In this document: positions 6,012 through 43,197 of the stretch, piece after piece
Position numbering within the stretch: position 1 is the stretch's first letter
Layout of the letters: every line of letters starts with the position of its first letter
Source of the DNA: Ectocarpus siliculosus
Taxonomy: Eukaryota > Sar > Phaeophyceae > Ectocarpales > Ectocarpaceae
Direction: 5' to 3'
DNA: 46,151 nt
Assembly: GCA_000310025.1 (NCBI GenBank)
Contig: FN649739.1
Location: 1,058,560-1,104,710, forward strand
The notes under the pieces: model-generated
What the model saw: only the letters and a program-made list of their open reading frames with translations
What the model was told of the DNA's origin: nothing
The model's database searches: none
Translations under genes and position numbers: made by a program

Positions 6012-8812
6012 TCAGGGCACCGTGTCTTGGATGGCCTTTACTGCGTCCATCACCTTGCCCTCCTTTGCGTCCATCACCCAGCCCTCCTCCCCGTCGGCAT
6101 CGAGTATTAGGTCGTCTTTGAGGAAGGCCAAGAGGAAGGCCGGGAGCAAGTCCGGCTGTGTGGTCGTGGAAATGTTTCCCTCGTCATCGGTACAACGGGA
6201 GGCTTCCATCAGGTCCATTGAAGTGAGCGCCTTTGTCTCGTCGAAGCAACTGTCACTCGGCTCCTCCTGCTTTCCAATAGCGTGCCGTTCAACGAGAGGG
6301 ATACAGAGACGGACAGCCGGACAGCCGGACAGACGAACAGATGATTCAGTCCAACCTCCGATGAGCCTGATTCCCTCTATGTACTGTAGGTGTACGTTTT
6401 CTTCATTTTTCTGCAGACTGTAGATCGGTCGCTGCCATCAAATCAATCACGACGCTGTTGTTGTCTATTGCGTGTTTATTGTGCCCGCCTTTGTGCAGTG
6501 GTGGGCCCAAACAACGATATCTGGTGAAGTTGTGTTACTTACCATCGGTGACGGAGGCCTCCCAATCACTGATGCCACTCGGTTCGGTGTGCTATCATCG
6601 GTACAACGATAGACTTCCATGAGTTCCGTTGGCGTGGGCGCCTTTTTCTCGTCGAAGAAATTGACACTAGGCTCATGCTGCTTTCCAACAGGATGTCGTT
6701 CAACGAGAGGGTAAAGGGACAGAGAGACAGAGTGACAGACAGACAGAGAGGTTATTCAGTCCGCCGATAAGCCTGATCCATAATCTATGTTTACGTTCTT
6801 CATCGTTCTGCCGACTGCAGAGCGGTCGATGCCAACTAGTCAACGTGCTTTATTGTCGTCTAATGCCTGCTTTTTGTGCCCGCCTTCGTACCGTAGTGGG
6901 GACAAACATCAAATAGTTGATGAAGTTGTGTTACTTACCATCCGTGACGGAGGCCTCCCAATCGCTGATGCCACTTGGTACGGTTTGCTATCATCGGTAC
7001 AACGGTAGACTTCCATCAGTTCCGTTCGCGTGAGCGCGTTTTCCTCGTCGAAGAAACGGTCACTCGGCTCTTCTTGCTTTCCAATACCATGCTGTTCAAG
7101 GGATAGAGGGACGGAGAGACAGGGGGACAAAGATATTATTCAGTCCGACCTCCGATAAGCCTGTTCCTCTGTTTTTGTGTACGTTTTCTTCGCGGTTCTG
7201 CCGACTGTAGAGCGGTCGATGCCAACTCTTCCATCACGACGCTTTATTATCTTCTATTGTTTATTTTTGTGGCCGCCTTCGTACCGTAGTGGGCCTAAAT
7301 AACAATAGTCCGTGTCGTTGTGCTCCTTACCAGCGATGACGGAGGCCTCCCAATCAATGATGACACTCGGTTCGGTGTGTTATCATCGGTACAACCGGAA
7401 ACTTCAGTCAATTCCGTTGCCATGAGCGCCTTTTCCTGGTCGAAGCAACTGCAGTCGCTCGGCACTTCTTGCTTTCCTATAGCGTGCTGTTCAAGAGGAG
7501 AGATAGAGAGACGGAGAGACAGAGAGAAACATGATTCAGTCCAACCTTCGACAAGGTTGATCCACTGCTGTGTCTTGTGTCCACTTCATTTAACACACAA
7601 ACACATTCTCATTCGTCCGCGGCTAGCACGGTCGATGCCAACTAAAGAGCCGCGACGCTTTTCGCCTTCTGTTCTTGGCGTTTTCTCCGCTTTCGGCCCT
7701 TACAAATTGTTTGTCGTATTCCTTACCATCGGTGACCAAGGGGTCCCAATCGCTGCCGCCACTTGGTCGGGGTTGCTCTGGTCGTTGTCTTTGGCGTTAT
7801 CATTAATGACCACGGCGTCGGGGGCTGAAATTGCCGCGGCTGCGGCCGCGATTTTGTTCCTGATGCGTTTGCTCCTCCGCGGTATGGGCTGGGCGTCACG
7901 TGGGCGGTGCTTCCGCTTTTGTGTTTGCATGTCGCGTTCAGTGGGCTGGAGCGAGGATTGCAGAGACAGACGCACATGACAGGGGAAGAGGAAATATTTT
8001 GGCGGATGGACGAGGAGGTACGTACATTGACCCGTTGTGTACAGATCACAAACTTGCGCAACCTTTAGCCTCCCATAACCACTGCAGAGCGCTCTTTGAG
8101 AACATTTGAATCGGGCTCCGGGCAGTGTACACTTGCCATACATGCGACCCCTTCAACTGAGTCACGGAAATTGTGATGAAACACTTCTCGCCTCGTGGTT
8201 CTATGGGAAACATACCACGATGTACACGTAAGGGGCGGTCTATGGGTGTGTGTGCTCAAGGATAATCTGGTGCGCCCAGAATGTGCCGCCGAAACAAAGA
8301 CAACAACATCCCATGTACAGCAAAACGTGTTTCACGATTGGTGTACTGTAGATCCCAAAGAGGACAAACTAAACGAGCGGAGCCCAGCATCGAAAGAGAG
8401 CGACCATGACAAGGGGTTTGGTCGCCGAGAAAGGCCCTCTCCCTCTGTGGCTACGAAGTCTAGGTCTGTTGTTCATGCAAATAGTCACCAGTTTTCGTCG
8501 CATCTCTTCCATGCGGGGGCACATTACGTGTAGTTGCACCTGCGACGTCGCCGCGGCGTTCGCAATCTGGCCTACCTAAGATTCAATGGGAAAGCGAGTG
8601 TCCAACCTGGACAATTGCCCAAGTGTCCAACCTGGGCAATTGCCCAGTGCCCGATCCGTCCAGCAACAAAAGGGTTTTACCTGTGGCGAAGGCAGCGAAC
8701 TCTCATCCCAGCGGAGTGAATATTGATGGCCGGTTTCCTCGCCCATCGCGCAGATGCCATGGCTAATTCGAACAGTTTCTCCGTTGCTCATCTTGAAAAC
8801 GCCCTCAGAGCT
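6012..8812 (-). CDS. Unrecognised nuclear-type protein built from tandemly repeated phase 0-0 exons
   Basis: Read on the minus strand, the exons are 8681-8812 (44 codons; upstream limit uncertain, possible start ATG at 8791), 7727-7930 (or from 7945), 7331-7486, 6939-7091, 6543-6680 (or 6695) and the terminal exon 6012-6269 (or 6284), which ends in TGA. Every internal junction is phase 0. The middle exons are variants of one module of 51-52 codons with the pattern GKQEEPSD..FDE..AL...EL.EV.RCTDD..P..V.S.IGRPPS. The 7727-7930 exon keeps only the end of the module (DQVAAAIGTPWSPM) and starts with a basic stretch, RRSKRIRNK, that looks like a nuclear localisation signal. The terminal exon keeps the start of the module and then diverges (acidic, ending AVKAIQDTVP). 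I recognise no family. The exon-intron unit repeats every ~400 bp, so the array grew by tandem duplication. Confidence 0.62.
6170..7810. repeat. Tandem array of a ~400-bp exon-plus-intron unit
   Basis: Blocks beginning near CATCGGTACAAC at about 6186, 6595, 6994 and 7385 carry the same order of elements: exon, polypyrimidine tract, a segment with CCGACTG.AGAGCGGTCGATGCCAAC, and a segment with GCCCGCCTT.GTACCGTAGTGG. A fifth, more diverged unit ends at about 7810. The units are clearly homologous in introns as well as exons, which shows tandem DNA duplication rather than convergence of exon sequence. Confidence 0.88.
8597..8646. repeat. 25-bp tandem repeat, two copies
   Basis: AGTGTCCAACCTGG followed by (A/G)CAATTGCCCA occurs at 8597-8620 and again at 8622-8646, about 35 bp downstream of the donor of the 8681-8812 exon on the minus strand, so it sits in an intron. 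Confidence 0.85.
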
Positions 8813-14065: not shown

Positions 14066-17000
14066 TCATCTCTGCATCTTCTGCCTCTTGTTTGCCTGGC
14101 CGTCCCGCTTTGCATCTTTCCGCTTTTGGGTGGACGAAGCTTCGACCGGTTCCTCTTCAGCAGAAAGTATATCTTCGAGGGTCATCATCGCGTACTCTGC
14201 AGCCATCTTCGCAAAGTGAGGAGGAAGCGAGGGTGGGGATCATCGTGAGAATGGGAGATGGGTGGTCGACAGGATGTTGGAGAATCATTTATTTGGAATA
14301 TTCTTGGAATGGGAACATTTCAAGCATCATACCACCACTTTTTACCTCATTGAAAGATACCGCCTGAGGTATACCAGGGACCATCTGCCGAGCTCTCAAC
14401 CATACGCTTTTCGATCGCCTGCGCGATAATAGAGAGAGAACGTTTTCGCCATAAAAGCTCCACCGCGCACTGGTTGAGTACACTGATACCTGGTGTTGAA
14501 GTGGTGGTCCACCGCCATGGGATGGCGCCGCCTCTGCCCGCTGGCACACGATCTCCCCGGCCTCGGGCGTGAGGACCGGTCTATTTCTCTCTCGTCTTCC
14601 GTCGTTCTCCCCAGTGCAACCAGAATCGCTACGCACCCTTTTCTCTCCGCCGGCGTACCCCTCCGACTCCCAAAAATCTGACAGCGAGAGGGAATCAACG
14701 TTGCCCCCCCTCCACATTTTCGGTAGATTCCCGGCGCCCCTTTCCGAGACATCTCTCGCCAGGGGGGGTGGTTCGAAGCCGCTCCTCCATCCCGCGGACG
14801 GTGGGCTCGTCACACCTAAAATCGCGCGTGGATCGCCCTCCCGCCGATCCTTGGTGCACCGATTATCGTGCCGGCCGGCGGCGGCTTCCGCGCTCCCGCC
14901 TTCTCCGCTCCCGCGCGGGACGGATTTGTGTACCTCCGCACTCCCGTTGCCGCTGCAGGTGTGGCTTGCCGTCGTCTTCTCCACCCCCTTGGGACCGGTT
15001 TCATCAGGTCGTGTGAGGTCGACGACCTCTGGTGTGTCGCTGTGTTCCCGCCGAACAGGGTGCTGGTTTGGGGCATTGTTTTCTCCGTTGCATTCTCCTT
15101 CGTCTGCCTGTCGCGGCCGAGGATTGTCGGGTGCCGTCTCCCCTATCCCCTCTTCGCTACTATCATCAGATCGTGTGAGGTCGACAACCTCTGGGGTGTC
15201 GCGCCCGTTGCTCTTGTTGTTTTCTACCTCATCCTGTCCTCCTCCTCCCGGCCGCGGCCAGGGTTCATCGAGCACCGTAGATGCGACGCTGTCGGCGTCG
15301 TTGTCGGCGTCGCTGCCGGCGTCGTTGTCGACGTCGCTGTCATCGCTCCTCGCTTCACCGTCGCCACCGTCGCCACCGTCGCCACCGTCGCCACCGCCGC
15401 CGTCGCCGCTGCTCTCGCGTCCCTCACCCTTGTCGCCCCCTCCTGGAGCAGTCCCCGCCGGAAGTTTCATCTCCGCCTTGAGTTGAGGCTCCAGCGGCCG
15501 CACACGCTCGGTCTCAAGCTTGGATGCATCAACGATGTCATTCCCGTCGTCGCCACCTGTGACCGTCGTCGACGTCGACGTTGTCGCAGCCGGCGCCGGC
15601 GCCGCTTGTCCCGCGACGCCCGGTGCTGGCTCGCCAACGGTGGAACCAAGGCCGTTTCCGTCCACGGCCTTGCCCGCGCTGCCCCGTCCCGGACACGCGG
15701 CGGAGCTGTTTTCCGCCACTCCCTGGGTAGGGCAACCCCTGACCCCCGAGGAAAGCGAAGGAGGATTCGCGTTCCGGCTGCTGGGTACGCTGCTACTGGC
15801 GGCGGTGCCAGCGGTCTTCCGCGCGAGCGGGGCGCGCGGTCGACGGGACTGTGAGCCGGTAGAGACCGCGTCCTGTCGCTCCCTGTTCACAGCTGCGCTG
15901 TCTGTAGCCTCGTCACGGAGCCTCGTCGCCGGCAACCCGTCGGACGCCATCGCTTCCTTGAGCTTGTCTGCTGCTTTCTGTGTGTTATGGCGCAGGAATC
16001 ATTGAAAGGAGGAAGAGAGCGCGGATGGGGGTTGCTGATGTTCCCGGATGCCCGGAATGTAGTCCTCGGTCATTCGTTTACATACCTAACCGGGACGGAG
16101 AACATCTGATTTAACCGGGTACCATCGCGTAGTTCCAAGAGTGAAGCGTGTTAAGTCCTCGAAAGTGCGAAGCGGACTTCGGTACGTCGGAATCTCTCGC
16201 AAAAGGACGGACACCTTGCAACTACTTGACTTGATTGTCCGGCTTGGCCACTTCCAGACGCATGCCTCGATAGATCAATACACACCGTGGGTACCCATTC
16301 ACGCCCTGCGTGATGCGATCGGCCCTCTTCTCCAACCCGCAACGCGTGATCTAACCCGATCACCATTCTCTGTTGCCGCGAAACTATCTACATAAAAACT
16401 GTTAAGAACGGTGACCTGCTGTTGTCTAACTCGTGCAGGGGGTCGCATGTTGCACACCGTAGTTGCTTAGCCTACACCGACTCGACATAGTCGTGGCAGC
16501 CCGGCTCAACACATGCATGACAACGGCCACATGACAAAACACATCGCGTAGACGCTGCATGAACAAGCACAAAGCACGTTCGTTGAGAACGGCAATTGCC
16601 GTCTCTGATACCCTGGCTACAATAACGTCTCCCGGCCGGCGATTTACTGGCCGTCTCACCTCCGGAGTGTAGTTGAAAACGCGCCAGCTAGACTCCAGGT
16701 AGGCGGCTGTGGAAGTGCCCGAGCCTAAATCTTCCACCTGGTACCAGTAACAAATGGAAACAGTGGAAAAATATTCCCGGACGTGTACAGCAGTGGATGG
16801 ATAAATACGTGGCATGGGAATTGCGAGCAACGGCGAGCTCTGTGTACGGGAGAGGGGTTGAGGATGATATCTGTATGTAGAATAAATCGCTGAGTCGTCT
16901 AAACGCACGGGAAACAGGCACAGCCACACGGGGTCCAATACAATAGTGTCGTGCGTAGTAGTTTGACTCTGGCTAAAGGCTCAACAAATCGCCAAGCAAC

Positions 17001-20000
17001 ACAGCTAGCACACGCCTGTAATTGTCTCTGCGCTAACAGCAAGCCGAAGCACGGGGTGTCGGTGCACCCGAGTGCAGCTACGCACGACGATTTAAGAGGC
17101 AATGTAACGTTTCATGGTCCCCACTCACGTCGGCCGCCGCCTTGCTTTCGGCTTCCTTTAGCTGTGCACGGAGATGGTGCCAAGTGCCCAATAGTACCGT
17201 TAGCGATGTAGACTGCCAGAAGGCCTCCGGGTCTGAGGCTCCACCCATGCCCGATATTTCAGGTGTGGCTTTTGCCAGGGGAGGGAGAACACGGGAGGAG
17301 AAAACGGGAGGAGAAAACGGGAACGGCAATCGTAGAGGGTGCAGCGATGAGGCTATAGAGGGAGGAGGGGGGGCATGTATGCATTTTTGGTATGTATTTT
17401 GACCTGACCGCTCAGTTTTGTTGTTGTCTTCACATTTAAGTGTGCAATCTAGAATAATTCCCATAGAGAACCCTCCGCACCGTTGCAGGCGCGCTCGACA
17501 GTATGGTCGTACTTCGCGTGAACATATCAAGCTTGCCAGGTCCCCGTGCTTTTCGGTGTGTCTTTGTCTGGCCGTAGTCTACGCCTCCCGGGGAAGCAAG
17601 CACAGGTCTACGTATGGGGGCAAGCGTCAACACATCCACCTGACACCCTTACGTCTGCCCCCTGCGCTAAGCCTTCTACTTGTTCTCAGCCGGCGATATC
17701 ACGTACGATGAGCGTATTCATGTTCATGAGCTTCTTCTGCCATTTATGCTTCACTCACTTGTAGCGTCGTCGGCCTTGATCCGCCGCGTCATATCTTTGC
17801 ACTCGGACACCAGTCCCTCACGATCCGACGGGGGTAACTGCTCGGCGTTGTCTTCGTCCTCGCCGCCGGAAAAACTAATCGATCGCAAAGAGGAATAGAA
17901 GAGTAGAAGAGGGCAAAGCAAAGAAAACAGCATCAGGTGCACCGTCAGTTAGTCTGTCCCCAATACAGGCCCTGCAACCATACATAGTGCGTCCTATACC
18001 TCGAGGGTCGTAAAAAAGGATATTTTGTTTATGCAAGGTTACAAAAAATAGGTGTGAAAAAAAAGCACAGATCGGGTAGAACAGCAAGAATCCCCTGAAG
18101 GAGAATCGAGCGCGAACGCAAGTCATCGCACGACGTAGTCGGCGGTGGTGTGACGACTGACTGACTTCGGGCGCTTATGTCAGGGTACTGGTGTTCATAG
18201 GAGGCTCGCGACTCTGCCTGGTGGGACGGATTCATGAACTGTGCATCCACCGTTTAGGTCGGCGTTGGTGCTCTAAACACGCGTGTACCTCGATGGCGCC
18301 GCGGTGGTGTCATCGTTCGTGGCCAATCGTCTGCTCATCCAGCGTAGAAGCATGGCCAGCTGTTCGGCTGCATCTCCGTGCAAGCCCCAAGCCTTGACAT
18401 CTTCGGTGGAGGGGCGCCCGTTCTCCGCCTAAGCACCCGAAGAACAACAAGCGACACCGACAAGAGAGCGTTGGACGAGGAAAGCAGAGACAGGAAGAGA
18501 CGGACAGAGAGCGAGACAGGACGATAGAGAATGAGCGAGAACGAGAGAGAGGGGGGGGGGGGGGGAGGGGAGACACACACACGCAGACCGAGCGAGAACG
18601 TTTCAAGCCTTTATTACGCGGAAGTGCATATTCTACTCGGGACAGTGCCTACCGCTACGGATGCTTCATGATGCAAGGACCGCATCATCCTATCGTGCGG
18701 TTACTGGCAACGTGCGCATCCGGAGAAGGAGCAGGGACACGGGGCATGTGAAAAGGAACAGAGGTAAGAGACCTGTGATCACAGCGACAGCCCTTTCCCG
18801 ATGGCAAGATCGTTCGAAAAAGGCAGATCAGCCAGGGGGGGGGCGTAAAGCAGCCTCAATCCCACCTGCTCTTCCCGAAAGAATGACACCGTCCGTTCTG
18901 CCGCAGCTGCCACCGTCTTCGGGCCCCAGAGTCCCACTCCCGACCTCCTGATCTCATTTTCATCCGTGGTGCCGTTGACGGCCCGAAAGAATCGTTTGAA
19001 GAAGTCCGCGCCGGGAGGTTGGTTGCGAGTTTGATAGGGCAGACCGTTCAACAGTTTTTCGGCTTTGGACAGCAGGATGTCCACAGACCTGGTGTTTTTT
19101 GGTCGAACAAGGGCGACGTGAGGCGGAAGGTGGGGTAGGTAGAGCATTCAAACACGACAAAGCACTCGTCAGTTCGATGCGCCAAGAGTTTACAAATTTC
19201 GTTCACGTCACACGGTCGGCATAGTCGCGCAGAGTATCCCCTTACTTCGCGTAGACAGTACATGATTCTCCAATCCCTATATCTGCTACATGTTTTCCCA
19301 CGGACGGTGAATGCTCACCACTTTCAAACGAAATGAACACTTCCGACGCCTGCCGCCTGCTTATTCAAAATCCAAAGGAGGTGGGTGTATTAAACTGTCG
19401 CCTGCCACGCGTAAGCACCAAACTGAAGCTATCTCGTCACCGCTTACAGTGGCGACACACTCTGCGGTACATATGTACGTGCGGACACGAAAGCCTCCCG
19501 CAGAGAGTCGCGAAGCAGGAAAGCAGGAAAACTTGAAGAATTTTGGATGGATTCCTCCGCGCTAGGTCGAGAGGCGTCTACATACATTCCGAACACAATT
19601 CTGTTTCTGACGCGAATAGCACAGGCCAGAGGAGAGGAGGGAAAGCGAACAGATATGTAGCAAGAGAGGGACGACGTGTGACTCTCACTCGGGAGCGCCA
19701 CCCGCAGCAGCGTACAAGTGAGGCAGGATGTTCCCTTCCAGCGGGCCATTATGGCCGTCTTCCTCCTCGTCGTCGTCGCCCGCATCATCAGCGCCGCCTC
19801 CAAAGTCCCCGCCGCCACCACCTACGCCTTCGGCCGCCGCCGCACCTTCCCGCACCAAGAGCCGTGCAGTTAACCAAGTTTTCTCGGAGGGTTGGGTATG
19901 GATACGAAGAGCGCTTGAAGGATAGGGTGGCAACCACTTCGTAGCGTTGTTTATTTTATCTTTGCATCATGCCCGCTCCGACTCCTATCCTGCACCTCCT

Positions 20001-23000
20001 CACCTGCTCATTTATCGGTAAGAAGACTTTTTTTCACTGTTGTTACAAAGTTGCTCTTGCACGAGAATATGGAACGAACACGACGCAGAGATTATCACAC
20101 TTTTTTGAAAAGACACTCAAACTTCCTCAGGATGGGATGGAAGCCTACAGACCATCCAGATCTTGACGGGTAGATATTATCGCGAAAAAGGGTTCGTGAT
20201 TTTCTCAAATCTCCTTCATCAGTGGACGCGATTCAACCTTGTTCAGGGACGCGAAGCATGAGTGGGTCGAACACGGCAGGCAGGTATCTCCTAGCCATAG
20301 CCAGCTTAGACAGGCAGAATAGATATCCTTCAAGCAGGAAACAAAAATATGATGCAACCTGGCTGTGAACCTTTCTGTAAGAAGCGCGGTGCAAGGCACC
20401 GTGAAAGAAAGAGCTGTCTGGCAAAAGCCTTGATGAGGAGGGAGGCCGAAAAAGGTACTTGAGGGATCGAACTTCCTTTCGCCGGAGGTATCACCTCTAC
20501 AATACTCAGAAGGTTGTCGAAAGCCATAATCGCACGAGTCATCACTTTGTTTGATTTTATCGTGGACGTCAACTGCCACTCTTGGTTTCAATACAAGTTT
20601 TGAGCCATGGCATCTCTTGTCGAGGTCTCTGGTTCTCCATCTCTCGTCACGCTGCCATTGCACCAACCTTGGGCCGCCTGCGCTGCTCCCCTCTTCAAGA
20701 ACACCGCTGCCGCCGATATCCCTCTGATCTCCAAGGCCTCTAGCAGGGTGGGCTGGATGTCGTTCGCCGCATCCAGCCGATCCTGCCACAAATCCGCCAC
20801 CTTCTCCACTTCGGACCTGACAGAGAGGCAAGAGGCAAGAGATTGAGGAGAGGTCTTGGGTGGGCATTCATGCAGCGCTTTCCTTGACGGCGAAAGTCTG
20901 AGCAGGGGTGGGGCGGGGCGGAGAAACGAAGGCTATGGCAGCTGTTAAGGCCGCCATTTTGGCTTGCTAGTTATTTTTCGTTTTCATTTGTTGCTGGCCT
21001 CCGTCGGTCTCTGCCTGAGACTCGGCACCTGGCATCGTCTTCGAGCTGCTCTTGCGTCTTTCCTGGGTTTTCCTCCGACAGCTCTTCCAATACCTCTGCC
21101 CTAAGCTCCTCGATCGCATTATTTTCCTTGAGGATAGCGGGGAGTAGACAAACGCCGGGGACGTCAACAGCAGCAACCGTGGCAGGAGATACAAGAAGAA
21201 GAACACGACAACAACAGCACAGCATCGCCATCATCACGATCAATATCATCATCAACAACAACAACAACAACAACAACAACGACCAGCCACCACAATGACC
21301 AGGCAGGCAGGAACCCATTTAAACGACAACAGGCGTGAAGACCCGCAAGACTGCAAACCTTTCGAGCGATCGCTACTGTAGTACGGCTCTACACGAGGAG
21401 GACGATATCCGGTGGTGGATCTTCAACCCCGCCCAATCTCCCAAACTACTGGCAGTTTTATTAAACTGCCCATGGGCACTTCATGAAATGCCCATGGGTG
21501 GGACCATGGGCAGCCGATGGACTGCCCACGAAGTGCCCACCGTGGGCACTTCGACCTAGAACTGAGCCACCCAGCCCCAACCTAGCACGTATCGTGTGGG
21601 TTTGGGGTTGGGGTTAGGGTTAGCGGTGCGGTTACTAGCTGTATTAGTACCCCTCCCAAAGCAGAAACTCTACTGTTGAGGAGTACAATGGTTTCGGTTG
21701 AAGGGCACTCACTGACGTTCCATGGGCTAACCCGTGGGCATTTCCCATGGGCAACCCATGGGCAGCCCAAGGATGCCCCCATGGACGGTTTCGCGAAACT
21801 GTAGGAAGGAGTGGGAGACCCACCCAGCGTGACAAATCGTTCTAGGACAAGCTGTGTGGTGTCGGGCATTCATCTGCCCTGTGCCGCACAACGCCCTGCT
21901 GCTACCCCCGGTGCTCACCGTCTGCGCCTGAGCTTCGGAAATCACGTCTTCGACCATAAACGACGCGTCGACCAGTTGTTGGTCAAGCTCTTCATCGTCT
22001 GCTTCTTCGCCCTGCTCGAGAGACGAACGAGCGCCGCTGACGCCCTCCCCCTCCGCCTCACTGTGCTCGGCCAGTCTCGCCAAGACCTTCGTAATCAGCG
22101 GGGGATCTCGCTTGGCTTCGGCGAACAAGGTCTGCGCCCACGCATTCACGAGGACAATCGCAGTCGCACCACCAGATGAGACAGAGAGTCAAGGGCATAC
22201 GCGTGGTGGGGAAATTATCATATTTAGCTGCTATTGGGGGTAGAGGGTGTAGGTGATCCTAGCTGGCTGGCTGATGGTGAGTTTGTAAACTAAGCTTGTC
22301 TTGTACTGAGAGGTGCCTAGTACTGCCGCGCACAGAACGACGAAAGTAAACGACCATGGGTGATGTTGACGTGCAGAGAAGGGGCTGCCGTCCTCTGCCT
22401 ATGGAAAGCAAAGTCAGGCGTACGGTAGGTGGTTGAGATCTATATCTATATGTAGGTACAAGCACTACAAATATCTTGTTTCGCGATATCACGCCCTGAG
22501 GGGGAGGTCATGCCCCCGACGCAAGCCCACCCGGGTAAAACGCCTTTCCCATCATACCGTGTCGTGATTACAAACACTCTGTTATGGGGGGTGGGTAACT
22601 TGGGTAGGATACAATCTGATAGATCCCCTACCTTCTCCGTTCCATAAACTTGAGACTTGCCTGTAGTGGCAACAGCTGACTCTGGTCGCAGCACAGGCAC
22701 TGCCACGCCTTGTCGGAGCTCGCCAAGGCCATTGCCGTACCTTCGCCAAGCTGGTCAAGGCAGCCGTTACAGAAGGCCCTGGTAGAGAGGTATGTACGTG
22801 TAAAAATTGTGTGCGAGTGTTGTTTCACGAGACTGCATTGACAAAAACAACGAGGTACACCAACAGGAAAGGGGGCCGGGCGGACGGCAGCAGGTCCTAG
22901 ACCTGAAGAGGGGCGAGAGGCACAGACAGGTAGACTTTCATACAGTAGCGTGATACTGACCGTTTCTTGTGAAAACAACTCTGATCTGCACTTATACGCC

Positions 23001-24452
23001 CGGAAACTTTCAAACAATGGAGTACGGACTAGTCAATGTGTTCTGGCAGCATACACCAAAGAGAGTGCTCAAGTCGACCCATACCCTTATTGCGCACGGT
23101 CATACGTAGAACGAGCAAGGTTTCGAATACTTCCGATGACTTCGTCAAGAATATGTCCGCACACACGAATAGAAGAATCCCCGGAAGGCTGGATGTGGGA
23201 CGAACCCCACTGTAGCGATGACACCCTAGCAACACCCAGCAATCACAAGAAAAGAGGGTGTGGGCAAAAGAAAAACATCCTACGTCACCGCCGATAAACA
23301 CCCATTTCAGGTCCACACGCACACGATGCGCACCTCCTGCAGTCGTGCTCATCGCAGCGGGACAATATGATCTCGTCGCTTTCCGTTTCCGCGCAGCACG
23401 CGCAGCAGGTGTCTTGGTCCTTGTCATCCATCCCTTCTCCGTTAATCATCTCGAGGCACCTGGAGAAGATTCATGCCTTTGTTGATGCCTGGTCTGTGAA
23501 GGATTTGTCAACCATGCATCTCTCTCGTTCTCCCATCATATAGACCCAAACTTCCATACAATATTGTAATACTCCATTGTACGGGGTTGTTGCCAGATTT
23601 CACAGCAGCTTTGGAACTATGTACATGCATGTGTTCCTCAGAGGAGGAAAGGGGACACCCTTGTTGGCGGGAAGTATGACATGTGGCTCGCGGAACAACG
23701 TATTGGGAGAACCGTAGTACAAACAGGAAACGATGCTTCTGACGGGGAAATCTATTTAAACGAGGTGCTCCCAACTTGATGCAATACCGTTGTCATTTAA
23801 TCTACCCCCTGAAGCACGGGCAATACCTCCCTGAAACATATCACGGTACGCTGGATAATCGGCTACGGTGCCACGCACCTCAGACACACGGCAACCCCAG
23901 GCACAACAGGATGTTCTTCAAGCCGGAACAAGCCTGATGACAGATCCTTAAGGCAAACGATGCACGAGAGGGCATGTCTGTCGTTCTCCGAAGAAGAAGA
24001 CGTCCGAAAACAATCACGCGGGTGACGGTGCGGGGGGGGGGGCGGGCTACGTCAGCGCCAGTTGAAGTAAAAACAAGAGATAAAATGGGTATTCGTAGCG
24101 TGCCTCCTTCTACGTCTTCTTTGCTTTCACTCGATTCAGTCTACGATCTACCGCCAGGCAACGTGGTGATTGATTGGAGGCCCGTTGGTATCTGGTAGTG
24201 TATTAGGTGGTGGTTGTTTGCTCACATTTTCAGCTACCTCAAAAATAATCGTTTCGGTGTTTGCAACCTGAACGCAGAAGCATAATGTAGCCATGCATAA
24301 GACGTCTTCTATGGAGGATGGTGGGTCCTCTTTTGTGACTAATGTGGTGCTCACGTCGAATCCTCCGACATGCCATGGTCCATCTTGAGCTTCGTAGGCT
24401 CCGGTTACCATCCACCCCACAACTCGCTTCCTCGCGCCGCTCCAGGTATAAG
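14066..24452 (-). CDS. ADD-domain (ATRX/DNMT3-type) chromatin reader with tandem SUMO-interacting motifs
   Basis: Minus-strand exons: 24226-24452, 23879-23985, 23334-23459, 22632-22778, 21919-22131, 21029-21126, 20668-20816, 19689-19845, 18866-19088, 18289-18428, 17759-17874, 17129-17268, 14490-15977 and 14066-14206 (TGA). Every junction is GT-AG and in phase except exon 4 to 5, where a 28-nt exon (22371-22398) would restore phase. The protein has at least ~1,150 residues. Exons 2-4 encode a complete ADD domain: a GATA-like finger (SCIVC, then VCLRC across a splice) and an all-Cys PHD-like finger (CCACC, RCDEHDC, AFCNGC, QCLCC). ADD domains read histone H3 tails unmodified at K4 or methylated at K9. 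Next come helical, acidic exons, then a long disordered exon with two VVDLT motifs and a C-terminal KRKDAKR/NKRQK nuclear signal. No SNF2 helicase or methyltransferase is seen. The start lies upstream of 24452. Confidence 0.88.
14490..15977 (-). other. Large disordered exon with two SUMO-interacting motifs
   Basis: The 496-codon exon starts with a helical segment (KAADKLKEAMAS) that continues the coiled-coil-like end of the exon before it. It is otherwise rich in Gly, Ser, Asp, Glu and Pro. DTPEVVDLTR occurs twice, with VVDLT codons at 15174-15188 and 15012-15026, 54 residues apart. The first is followed by SDDSSEEG, the acidic/phosphorylatable flank typical of SUMO-interacting motifs. A GGDGGDGG run and a DNDAGSDADNDADS acidic run precede them. 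The exon ends at the donor CACCAG|GTATCA. Confidence 0.8.
21451..21795. repeat. Palindrome-rich segment with repeated CCATGG
   Basis: This lies within an intron of the ADD-SIM gene. It contains a hairpin at 21451-21470 (GGCAGTTT / AAACTGCC), a perfect 12-bp inverted repeat with one-base spacer at 21529-21553 (CGAAGTGCCCAC), at least seven CCATGG sites in ~320 bp, and a palindrome GTTTCGCGAAAC near 21788. The density of palindromes suggests a miniature or foldback element. Confidence 0.75.
21599..21624. repeat. Short telomere-like tract (GGGGTTAGGGTTAG)
   Basis: GGTTTGGGGTTGGGG runs into TTAGGGTTAG inside the palindrome-rich intron. It is a short TTAGGG-type interstitial tract and is related in sequence to the much longer tract at 42991-43184. 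Confidence 0.6.
22632..23985 (-). other. ADD zinc-binding domain, spread over three exons
   Basis: The exon 23879-23985 carries the first Cys pair (SCIVC) and an HP dipeptide followed by VAVC. The exon 23334-23459 completes that finger (CLEM) and carries CCACC and RCDEHDC. The exon 22632-22778 carries AFCNGCL, a 23-residue spacer and QCLCCDQSQLLPL. Cys spacing in the PHD half (C-x4-C-x2-C with Cys in place of His) is the arrangement known from ATRX and DNMT3. Two ligands or their codons are rebuilt exactly at splice joins, which supports the exon model. Confidence 0.9.
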
Positions 24453-40600: not shown

Positions 40601-43197
40601 TTTCCCTACGCTTCGAAGTACAGAAATACTATAAAAGAATTTCTTGCATGAACGAACAAAACAAATTGGTATCCGACGAGAAAAAAAAACACGAATCCGG
40701 ATTCTCAACGACACGCAAGCTTCAACGCGGTTCGGTTTCTACGAAAATCACACACCCAAAAGCTTTCCTGCACAACAGGAACCTCTCTACACCCCCGTTA
40801 TCCCCGTCCTTTCGAACAGCAGCACTGCTGTACCTGAGCGATCGTTTCCACCTTGGACAGCGTCTGGATGCCAGACACAACCACCGACCAGAAGATAATG
40901 CCCAAGGCGAGACCCAGGTTCACAAACCGATTCCTGTTCTGGACGTGGATCACGTGGTTCGTCACGTTTTTCCTGAGCCATGCATATTTGCGGCGGGGCG
41001 TCCGTCATGTGCGCTTCAGTTGCCGCGTGCGGAAATTTGGGTGGGATCATATCACGATTTTCGTTTGAATTTTATTATAAGGGGTGGAAAAGGACGAAAC
41101 CAGAAAAATTGTCGTCAAAGGGATAGGCCCGCGGAAAGAGGCCAACTACCGGAAGGGGGGCTTCGTCAGATTCAGCACGAGGCCAGGGAGGGGGGGGCAC
41201 GAGTTGGGAAAGCACTCCGCAAGCGGGGGCGTGGTTGTCGCATGGAAAAGAGGGCGAAGGGGCCCCTGTTTTTTTTTGCCTTCCTGCCTGCCTTTCTCGG
41301 TGCCCCTTTTTTTCCCACTTTTTGTTTTTTTTTTTCCCTTCCCCCCCCCCCCCCCCCCCCTCTCTTTCTCTATCCCTCTCTCCCGCAAAGATTTGTTGGC
41401 ATCTTGGACAGTAACGACATGCACCTCCGAATCTACGGGGGATCCAGGTGCCTTTCAAGTTTCAGCATAAATATGCATATGAGTAGCGTCACATGTGCGG
41501 TAAGCAATAACCTAGCTATCCCCCAACCGCGTCCCATCCCCAACACCCCCTCTCTCACCATACGATGTCGCGAGGCTCCGGTGCCGGTGTGAGATTGAAC
41601 ACCTCCGGCCGGTTGGTGACAAGGGTAGACACGGCGCAGGCGCGGCCAGAGAGGCACTTGAAGGTCACGAAACCGGTTCCGGACATGCCTCCAGCCTTGG
41701 TCAAAACCTGAATCGGGCCGAGAAAAAAACAGTTGGTTTTTCGTCATGTGTGGTACGAGGTTGTGGGGATCAGGCAGCCGAACGATATAAGAAGGACACG
41801 CCATCAGTTATGCCACCACGGCCATCAGTGCTTCATGGGGAAAAAATGTGTCGGTATTTTTTTTGTCTTGAAAATCGATCTCGAACCTCCATCCTGCATC
41901 CTCGTAGCCGTATCAGTCCAACCTCTAACGGTATCTGTTGTTTCGCTCGCTCTCAACATTTTCAAGAAATATCGCGAACGCGCTGACGAGCGGGAGGTAG
42001 GAAGCATTCCTTGTCTCTTCTTCATTCCACGAGCATCCTCGAGGTGATTGCTAGATCCTGAAACATCAGATGCTCCCGACCCCCGACCCCCTTCAGATGA
42101 CAGGTTCTCAAGCAGTTGCTGGAATTTGGATCTGTGGGTGTGGCAGGTGTCCAGAGCTGTGAAACCTTACACTGTCAGCACGCAAAGCCATCGCGGTGTT
42201 TACTGCATACTGCATACGAAGCACCAACTACAAATAGCCAACAACACCAACACCAACAACACCACCAACAACGACGACGACAATTGAGGAATGCAAACAT
42301 AGAACGGCGAATCCTACGTGCCGGATTGCCAACGTGTAGACCCCTCAAGCACCATAAGATATGGAGATACACATGTGGACACAAAAATATTCAAACCCCC
42401 TCATGTTGTTCGTGATCGAGGTCGGCAAGTCCCGACATGATCGAGGTCGACATGCACAGACGTTTTCAATGTGGACGTGTACAGACATTATCGTCGACAT
42501 TGTACAAAAAAAGTGTTCCGAATCCTGAAGAGAGTCAGTCACCTTGACAGCGTCCGCCACCTCGCTGACGCTCTCCCCGACCCCTCTCCGGAGATCATTC
42601 ACCGTATCCTTGACGGTATCCTTCACCTCGTTCACTCCTCGCTTCATCTTGCGGCCTGTTCTCACCGCTCGCTCTACACAACACATTGGCAAAAAAAATG
42701 GGACGGAGAGTTGGTGGTGCGCAAACGGGGTCGAAAAGAGAAAATATGGCATGCGTTCCGTTGGACCCATCCACACACACAAGGACAAGGAAAAAATAAA
42801 AATGAGAATAATAAGAGTTGTTGATGCGGGCGGGGGGTCCTAGAAAAAAAAAAAACTGCACGACATGCGGTCGGTCGGTCGGTATCAGGACGTGAGAACA
42901 ACGAGCCTCCAAATGTCGGCTGAACATCTCCATCTCTCTCTACCTTTCAGCCTGTGTCCCTCCGGTTTCTCTGCCTCTCCCCCTCTCTCCTAACCCTAAC
43001 CCTAACCAACCCTAACCCTAGCCTTAACCAACCCTAACCCTAACCTTAACCAACCCTAACCCTAATCCTTAACCAACCCTAACCTTAGCCTTAACTAACC
43101 CAAACTAACCCTAACCAACCCTAACCTTAGCCCTAACCTCAACCAACCCTCTAACCCTAACCCTAACCCTAACCTTACCCTAACTCTCGCTCTCTCG

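What the first reader, a model, noticed from the sequence alone, without database searches (positions are those of the whole stretch)
14066..24452. An ADD-domain protein with no helicase or methyltransferase, coupled to SUMO-interacting motifs
The exons encode a full ADD module, with all zinc-ligand pairs present and two rebuilt exactly at splice junctions. A helical middle and a disordered tail with two SUMO-interacting motifs and a nuclear signal follow. Known ADD proteins (ATRX, DNMT3A/B/L) pair the module with a SNF2 motor or a methyltransferase fold. Here neither is visible over at least 1,150 residues. It may be a stand-alone histone H3 reader that recruits SUMO-modified partners, an architecture I do not know as described.
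Basis: partly seen in the sequence, partly recalled or inferred. Interest (0 to 1): 0.88.

Follow-up and report, generated by a model that had tools for sequence, protein, structure and literature searches.

The report
Motorless duplicate of brown-algal ATRX
A brown-alga gene encodes the front half of the chromatin protein ATRX, with its histone-reading domain and SUMO-binding motifs but no ATP-driven motor, while what looks like the complete ATRX gene sits elsewhere in the same genome.

Summary
On the minus strand, 15 phase-consistent exons (24383 to 14066) encode 1,104 residues: an N-terminal ADD domain with all 12 zinc-ligand cysteines, a helical middle, and a low-complexity tail with two VVDLT SUMO-interacting motifs and a basic end. 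No SNF2 motor was detected in the gene or the window. Predicted proteins of three Ectocarpus species match the exons; only the E. fasciculatus one carries the whole ADD with both motifs.

The interpretation changes. Elsewhere in the same genome (C6) a second, longer gene has the same exon series and runs on, through one SUMO-interacting motif, into ATRX-type SNF2 exons: a full-length ATRX. The window gene's penultimate exon ends at the donor that in C6 leads to SNF2 motif I; here it joins a 46-residue terminal exon. So this is a DNA-level duplicate of ATRX cut off at the motor boundary, its SUMO motifs inherited.

Motorless ADD proteins are known (human ATRXt, Drosophila dADD1), so this is a new variant, not a new architecture. 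Likely role, inferred: H3-tail- and SUMO-bound adaptor or competitor of ATRX. Not shown: expression, zinc fold (AlphaFold2 did not resolve it), ligand.

The parts
14066..24383 (-). whole coding gene, 15 exons, 1,104 residues: motorless ATRX duplicate
   Evidence: spliced frame without internal stop, phases fit; matched by P0001-P0003
24355..24383 (-). exon 1, start codon (MDHGMSEDS)
   Evidence: same start in public protein P0002; in-frame TAA upstream
23879..23977 (-). exon 2: ADD, GATA-like zinc finger (C15, C18, C41)
23334..23459 (-). exon 3: ADD, C44, acidic linker, first PHD-like ligands (C62, C65, C78, C83)
22661..22778 (-). exon 4: ADD, last PHD-like ligands (C88, C91, C112, C115); inferred GC donor at its end
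   Evidence: C6 has a GT donor at the same codon
16660..22131 (-). exons 5-13: helical middle (residues 125-562): 22131-21919, 21126-21029, 20816-20668, 19845-19689, 19088-18866, 18428-18289, 17874-17759, 17268-17129, 16737-16660
   Evidence: phases; 78.5% identity to P0003 over residues 125-620; helices predicted
14490..15977 (-). exon 14: low-complexity tail; its last residues (LTPEAGE...LQHQ) match the end of the C6 ATRX exon before SNF2 motif I
15174..15188 (-). SUMO-interacting motif 1, VVDLT, residues 826-830
   Evidence: VIDLT in E. fasciculatus
15012..15026 (-). SUMO-interacting motif 2, VVDLT, residues 880-884
   Evidence: VIDLT in E. fasciculatus
14066..14206 (-). exon 15: terminal exon (46 residues) that takes the place of the motor; basic C-terminus RKDAKR...KRQK
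   Evidence: same end in P0001-P0003; motif scan

Best explanation
The gene is a duplicate of the brown-algal ATRX gene that keeps the N-terminal half (ADD reader, helical middle, SUMO-interacting tail) and has lost the SNF2 motor, cut at the exon boundary before motif I, where a 46-residue basic terminal exon takes over (shown by sequence comparison). Most likely mechanism (inferred): the nuclear protein docks on histone H3 tails through the ADD, probably tails unmethylated at K4 rather than tails trimethylated at K9, and on SUMO-modified chromatin proteins through two SIMs. It shares partners with ATRX but cannot remodel nucleosomes, so it acts as an adaptor that holds SUMO-marked factors on chromatin, or as a natural competitor that tempers ATRX. 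My confidence is about 0.9 for the identity and about 0.4 for the adaptor-or-competitor role; the figure below is for the whole.
For: Spliced gene model. ADD by PDB and profile comparison, 12 of 12 ligands invariant in four sequences. No motor in the window. The genome has just two loci that match ADD or middle exons, C14 and C6 (6 matches, 12). C6 carries the same exon series and goes on into SNF2 exons that match an ATRX with ADD and SNF2 (P0005) with 242 bits in sum, against 156, 131 and 53 for three other SNF2 proteins; its joints from tail to motif I and the next exon are phase 0 and one rebuilds LLEHQ|VEGVQFMYD. Five of five intron positions examined in ADD and middle agree in place and phase. 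The end of window exon 14 matches the end of the C6 pre-motor exon: 5 of 5,000 shuffles reach the score, 0 of 5,000 for E. fasciculatus. SIMs kept as VIDLT in E. fasciculatus although the tail is 62% identical. The genome has a SUMO-like gene ending EQQGG (recognised by eye) and an SP-RING domain. Motorless ATRXt still reaches heterochromatin and binds HP1-alpha and DAXX (PMC13074095, passages).
Against: No transcript evidence. The public models P0001 and P0002 leave out all or two of the three ADD exons, and P0002 lacks one SIM. One intron needs a GC donor. The Pfam ADD match is below cut-off. AlphaFold2 did not resolve the ADD. The acidic residue E218 of ATRX is T60 here, so even H3-tail binding is uncertain. 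After the first, the tail anchors shared with C6 are weak one by one (E 0.06-0.45). No annotated brown-algal protein spanning ADD and SNF2 was found, Helicase_C was not found at C6, and a run of 6,454 N lies just beyond. The P0004 protein of Scytosiphon that I take for ATRX has no SNF2 in its partial model.
Confidence: 0.75

Rival explanations
1. A decaying copy: a partial ATRX duplicate whose ADD is no longer spliced in or no longer works, on the way to a pseudogene.
For: No expression data; public models P0001 and P0002 skip ADD exons; GC donor; the window copy has diverged more (45% from C6) than C6 from Scytosiphon (69%).
Against: Intact 1,104-codon frame; an E. fasciculatus copy with an open frame of 1,066 residues, 78% identity in ADD and middle, every ligand and both SIMs kept.
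Confidence: 0.1
2. A dADD1-like partner: the gene supplies ADD function in trans to a motor protein, as in Drosophila, rather than competing with it or serving as an adaptor.
For: Same layout as dADD1, which binds the motor protein (PMC4249797, abstract and results section on the ADD).
Against: The motor gene on C6 keeps its own ADD with all 12 ligands, so it lacks no domain that this gene would have to supply.
Confidence: 0.08
3. Gene-model error: the ADD exons and the SIM exon belong to different transcripts.
For: No cDNA; P0001 starts at exon 5.
Against: Phase-consistent chain without stop; ADD and SIMs in one predicted protein in E. fasciculatus; same exon order on C6.
Confidence: 0.05
4. 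Not an ADD but another double zinc finger (LIM, PHD or RING-like).
For: LIM and other zinc proteins also appear in the PDB search; Pfam ADD below cut-off; zinc fold not resolved by AlphaFold2.
Against: Best PDB sequence matches are DNMT3A and ATRX ADD; hhalign E 4e-8 to an ATRX ADD; linked to an ATRX-type motor on C6.
Confidence: 0.02

Closest known systems
Full-length ATRX (here the C6 gene of the same genome; P0005 as an animal-type example)
   Same: N-terminal ADD; the C6 gene shares the exon series of ADD, middle and tail, and a VVDLT motif, up to the exon before SNF2 motif I
   Different: No SNF2 motor; own 46-residue terminal exon; two SIMs instead of the one seen in C6
ATRXt, truncated human/mouse ATRX isoform (PMC13074095, passages)
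   Same: ADD kept, SNF2 lost, short unique C-terminus (61 residues in ATRXt, 46 here)
   Different: ATRXt is a splice form of the ATRX gene made by retention of intron 10; this is a separate gene
Drosophila dADD1 (PMC4249797, abstract and one section; PMC10671109, abstract)
   Same: ADD protein without motor, derived from the N-terminal half of ATRX
   Different: In the fly the motor protein has no ADD (fission); here the C6 gene keeps its ADD. Some dADD1 isoforms have MADF domains; none was seen here
DNMT3A/B/L
   Same: ADD domain; C-x4-C spacing in the PHD-like finger as in DNMT3A
   Different: No methyltransferase matched; Ectocarpus is reported to lack DNMTs and 5mC (PMC11244446, passage)
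ATRW, W-linked ATRX duplicate of axolotl (PMC6294749, passages)
   Same: Gene duplicate of ATRX that evolves faster
   Different: Recent (about 20 million years), sex-linked, no loss of the motor mentioned in the passages read; here the copy is old and its chromosome was not identified

Membership tests
ATRX family (by descent) | ADD domain with 12 zinc-ligand cysteines | tested here: met
ATRX family (by descent) | Shared exon series and intron phases with an ATRX gene | tested here: met
   collinear exons; five of five intron positions examined agree; the other positions were not compared
ATRX (as a remodeller) | SNF2 ATPase and Helicase_C | tested here: not met
   none in gene or window
H3K9me3-reading ADD (ATRX type) | Tyrosine at the position of ATRX Y203 | tested here: not met
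   M47 in the window, M in E. fasciculatus, S in C6, T in Scytosiphon; role of Y203 from PMC12900691, passages
H3-tail-reading ADD (K4me0) | Acidic residues before the first PHD cysteine | tested here: inconclusive
   D54, D55, D57, D59 present, but E218 of ATRX is T60; no binding test possible
ADD fold | Three zinc sites in a predicted structure | tested here: inconclusive
   ADD pLDDT mostly under 50 with 4-5 aligned sequences
ATRXt | Splice isoform of the ATRX gene | tested here: not met
   separate locus, C14 against C6
dADD1 | Motor protein without ADD in the same genome | tested here: not met
   the C6 gene has ADD and SNF2 exons in one phase-consistent series
DNMT3 | C5-methyltransferase domain | tested here: not met
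   no such Pfam match in 8 exon ORFs and the spliced N-terminal half
SUMO-binding protein | Hydrophobic SIM core next to acidic residues | tested here: met
   two VVDLT, first followed by RSDDSSEE; motif only
SUMO-binding protein | Binding to SUMO | not testable with these tools
   needs a binding assay

The most novel reading that the evidence does not exclude
Brown algae, which lack DNA methylation and H3K27 methylation and mostly show no detectable H3K9me3, changed the ADD of ATRX away from K9me3 reading. They then fixed a separate, motorless ATRX gene with doubled SUMO-interacting motifs that works as a dedicated SUMO-dependent H3-tail adaptor or built-in antagonist of ATRX.
Probability: 0.35. 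Interest if true: 0.68.

Novelty: new variant of a known kind. Interest (0 to 1): 0.5.

Why it matters
It shows, outside animals, an ATRX whose reader half became a gene of its own while what looks like the full gene was kept: a natural separation-of-function pair that could be tested by knock-out in a model brown alga. It also indicates that ADD-to-SIM coupling belongs to ATRX itself in this alga. The absence of the K9me3-contacting tyrosine in both copies gives a concrete, cheap binding test in a lineage whose heterochromatin marks are unusual. Two of the three public Ectocarpus gene models lack all or most of the ADD, so domain surveys are likely to miss the protein.

Tried and rejected

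The alternative terminal exon 14418-14347 fits the phase too; I rejected it because P0001-P0003 end in the exon at 14206-14066. Exon-wise searches of the genome with the Pfam ATRX and DNMT3 ADD models gave only sub-cut-off matches, 4 and 5, one of them on exon 4 of this gene; I put this down to introns splitting the domain.

Dating: over 492 gap-free columns the window protein is closer to the Scytosiphon protein P0004 (49.6%) than to C6 (45.5%); difference 4.1 points, bootstrap 95% 0.8-7.3. This favours a duplication before the Ectocarpus/Scytosiphon split, but four trimmed sequences without an outgroup cannot settle it. No Scytosiphon orthologue of the window gene was found; P0004 is labelled partial and I place it with ATRX by similarity only.

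DAXX histone-binding domain: no match in the genome, not conclusive for a gene split by introns.

Literature: the search for papers with both Ectocarpus and ATRX listed 3; I opened passages of one (PMC10538959: ATRX as a reference family, Ectocarpus in the reference list) and not the other two. Passage searches of the main text of PMC13076208 and PMC7784034 found neither ADD nor ATRX nor SUMO. No held paper names Esi0171. A passage search of PMC7181051 for ATRX residue numbers gave none of them.

Odds changed: the dADD1-like rival from 0.09 to 0.08, because the rivals are now listed in full.
Full report
WHERE IT LIES. The window is C14:1058560-1104710 of a 189-Mb assembly. The public Ectocarpus siliculosus protein P0002 (Esi_0171_0038, 'hypothetical protein') is nearly identical to the translated exons that it contains, and its contig length, 3,614,499, equals that of C14. 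So I take this to be Ectocarpus.

GENE MODEL. Reading the minus strand, I joined exons by splice sites and phase. Fifteen exons from 24383 to 14066 give 1,104 codons without an internal stop. Every intron is GT-AG except the one after exon 4, where I infer GC-AG (CAG|GCAAGT); the paralogue has a GT donor at the same codon, and the E. fasciculatus model has four extra residues there. An in-frame TAA precedes the start codon, and P0002 starts with the same residues. The terminal exon is the one used in P0001, P0002 and P0003. The public models disagree about the ADD: P0001 starts at exon 5; P0002 skips exons 2 and 3, part of the middle and one SIM; P0003 has it all.

ADD DOMAIN. Exons 2-4 encode C-x2-C ... 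C-x2-C, an acidic linker, then C-x2-C, C-x4-C, C-x2-C, C-x2-C. PDB sequences matched best are DNMT3A and ATRX ADD domains; with a 3-sequence profile DNMT3A/L lead, and LIM and other zinc proteins appear at similar, weak E of about 0.003. hhalign against the ADD of an animal-type ATRX (P0005) gives 94.9% and E 4e-8. All 12 ligands are invariant in window, C6, E. fasciculatus and Scytosiphon, and so is the His-Pro pair (H32-P33) that corresponds to H189-P190, mutated in ATRX syndrome (PMC4249797, section 20 read). Against this: the Pfam match is below its cut-off, and AlphaFold2 with 4-5 sequences did not resolve the domain.

MIDDLE AND TAIL. Much of residues 125-600 is helical in the prediction for P0003, with pLDDT 70-87 in two stretches; the tail is of low confidence and rich in G, A, S, D, E. 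Two VVDLT motifs lie in the tail; E. fasciculatus has VIDLT at both places although the tail as a whole is only 62% identical. Shuffled versions of the protein average 0.0017 such motifs. The genome holds a SUMO-like gene (ending EQQGG; recognised by eye) and one SP-RING domain match.

NO MOTOR HERE. PF00176 has 35 matches in the genome and PF00271 has 74, none in the window. tblastn with the SNF2 parts of P0005, P0006 and P0008 against the whole window gives a best E of 1.1.

THE PARALOGUE. Searching the genome with the Scytosiphon ADD (from P0004) hit C6 better than the window. A search with the window's middle exons found only C14 and C6 (8 and 4 of 12 matches). On C6, minus strand, the exons follow the window's order from ADD to tail. 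C6 then runs on: a tail with SVVDLTISDDEEEE and SNF2 exons with GNGCILAHCMGLGKTLQ, VVVADEAHLLKNE, TRRRVALTGSPLQNNLVEYY and MGFVQRKD. These exons score 242 bits in sum against P0005, an ATRX with ADD_ATRX, SNF2 and Helicase_C, and 156, 131 and 53 against three other SNF2 proteins. The C6 joints from the tail to motif I and the next exon are all phase 0 with GT-AG sites, and one rebuilds LLEHQ|VEGVQFMYD, as PHQVDGVQFMWD in P0005. I therefore read C6 as a full-length ATRX. Limits: no transcript; no annotated protein that spans it; Helicase_C unseen, with a run of 6,454 N just beyond; the joints between C6 middle exons 6 and 12 were not checked.

THE CUT POINT. The window tail and the C6 tail share anchors in the same order: LKEAMASDG...RAP, VVDLT, SL[SE]DFW, and LTPEAGE...LQHQ against LTPEDGE...LLEHQ (the first has E 1e-5, the others alone are weak, E 0.06-0.45). 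The last one ends exon 14 in the window and ends the C6 exon before motif I, both phase 0. For the window 5 of 5,000 shuffles reach the alignment score; for E. fasciculatus (EVAPFHGGGLSLQHQ) 0 of 5,000. So the duplicate keeps ATRX up to the last pre-motor exon and then reads a terminal exon of its own. Five of five intron positions examined in ADD and middle agree in place and phase, so the copy arose from DNA, not from mRNA.

LIKELY MECHANISM. Shown by sequence: domain content, loss of the motor, descent from ATRX, an orthologue that keeps the frame, ligands and SIMs. Inferred: nuclear location; H3-tail docking by the ADD; SUMO binding by the tail; sharing of ATRX partners. The ATRX residue Y203, whose mutation weakens H3K9me3 binding (PMC12900691, passages), is M in both Ectocarpus copies of this gene, S in C6 and T in Scytosiphon. 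This agrees with the report that among the brown algae examined H3K9me3 was seen in Undaria only and that DNA and H3K27 methylation are lacking (PMC13076208, passages). I therefore expect K4me0-type rather than K9me3-type reading, with the reserve that E218 of ATRX is T60 here. Human ATRXt without the motor still reaches heterochromatin and binds HP1-alpha and DAXX (PMC13074095, passages), which is the model for an adaptor or competitor.

KNOWN OR NEW. ADD proteins without a motor exist as ATRXt and dADD1; ATRX duplicates exist (ATRW, PMC6294749, passages). New here, as far as my searches go, is a separate ATRX-derived motorless gene beside an ADD-bearing ATRX gene in a stramenopile, cut at the motor's exon boundary and with two SIMs. 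That is a new variant of a known kind.

Noticed in passing
C6:2206045-2180400 (loci L060-L063): An Ectocarpus gene that reads as full-length ATRX (ADD, SIM, SNF2); its ADD lacks the K9me3-contacting tyrosine (S instead), and a stretch EPEVLITVLMGMGVVDDD in its tail looks UBA-like by eye (not tested).
   Followed up: partly
C6:2178806-2172353: A run of 6,454 N just beyond the SNF2 exons; the Helicase_C part of the gene may lie there.
   Followed up: no
window 42989-43184: Degenerate array of the telomere-type unit CCCTAA inside the contig, followed by about 130 bases of CT repeat.
   Followed up: no
window 6184-7555: Tandem array with a period of 396 bases, 3.4 copies, 75% matches.
   Followed up: no
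L050 (C11:1645900-1647100) and L049 (C205:33400-34600): Ubiquitin-like repeats next to a Cys-rich stretch of a shared type (LCIEGMCRNERCDARGQMV; LCLEGRCTNRQCDAHGRMV): one open frame in L050, two overlapping frames in L049.
   Followed up: no
C8:417877-421157 and C86:104464-107559: Tandem ubiquitin-like units 228 bases apart, probably two polyubiquitin genes.
   Followed up: no
public protein Esi_0171_0038 (P0002): The public gene model skips exons 2 and 3 (most of the ADD), part of the middle and the first SIM.
   Followed up: yes
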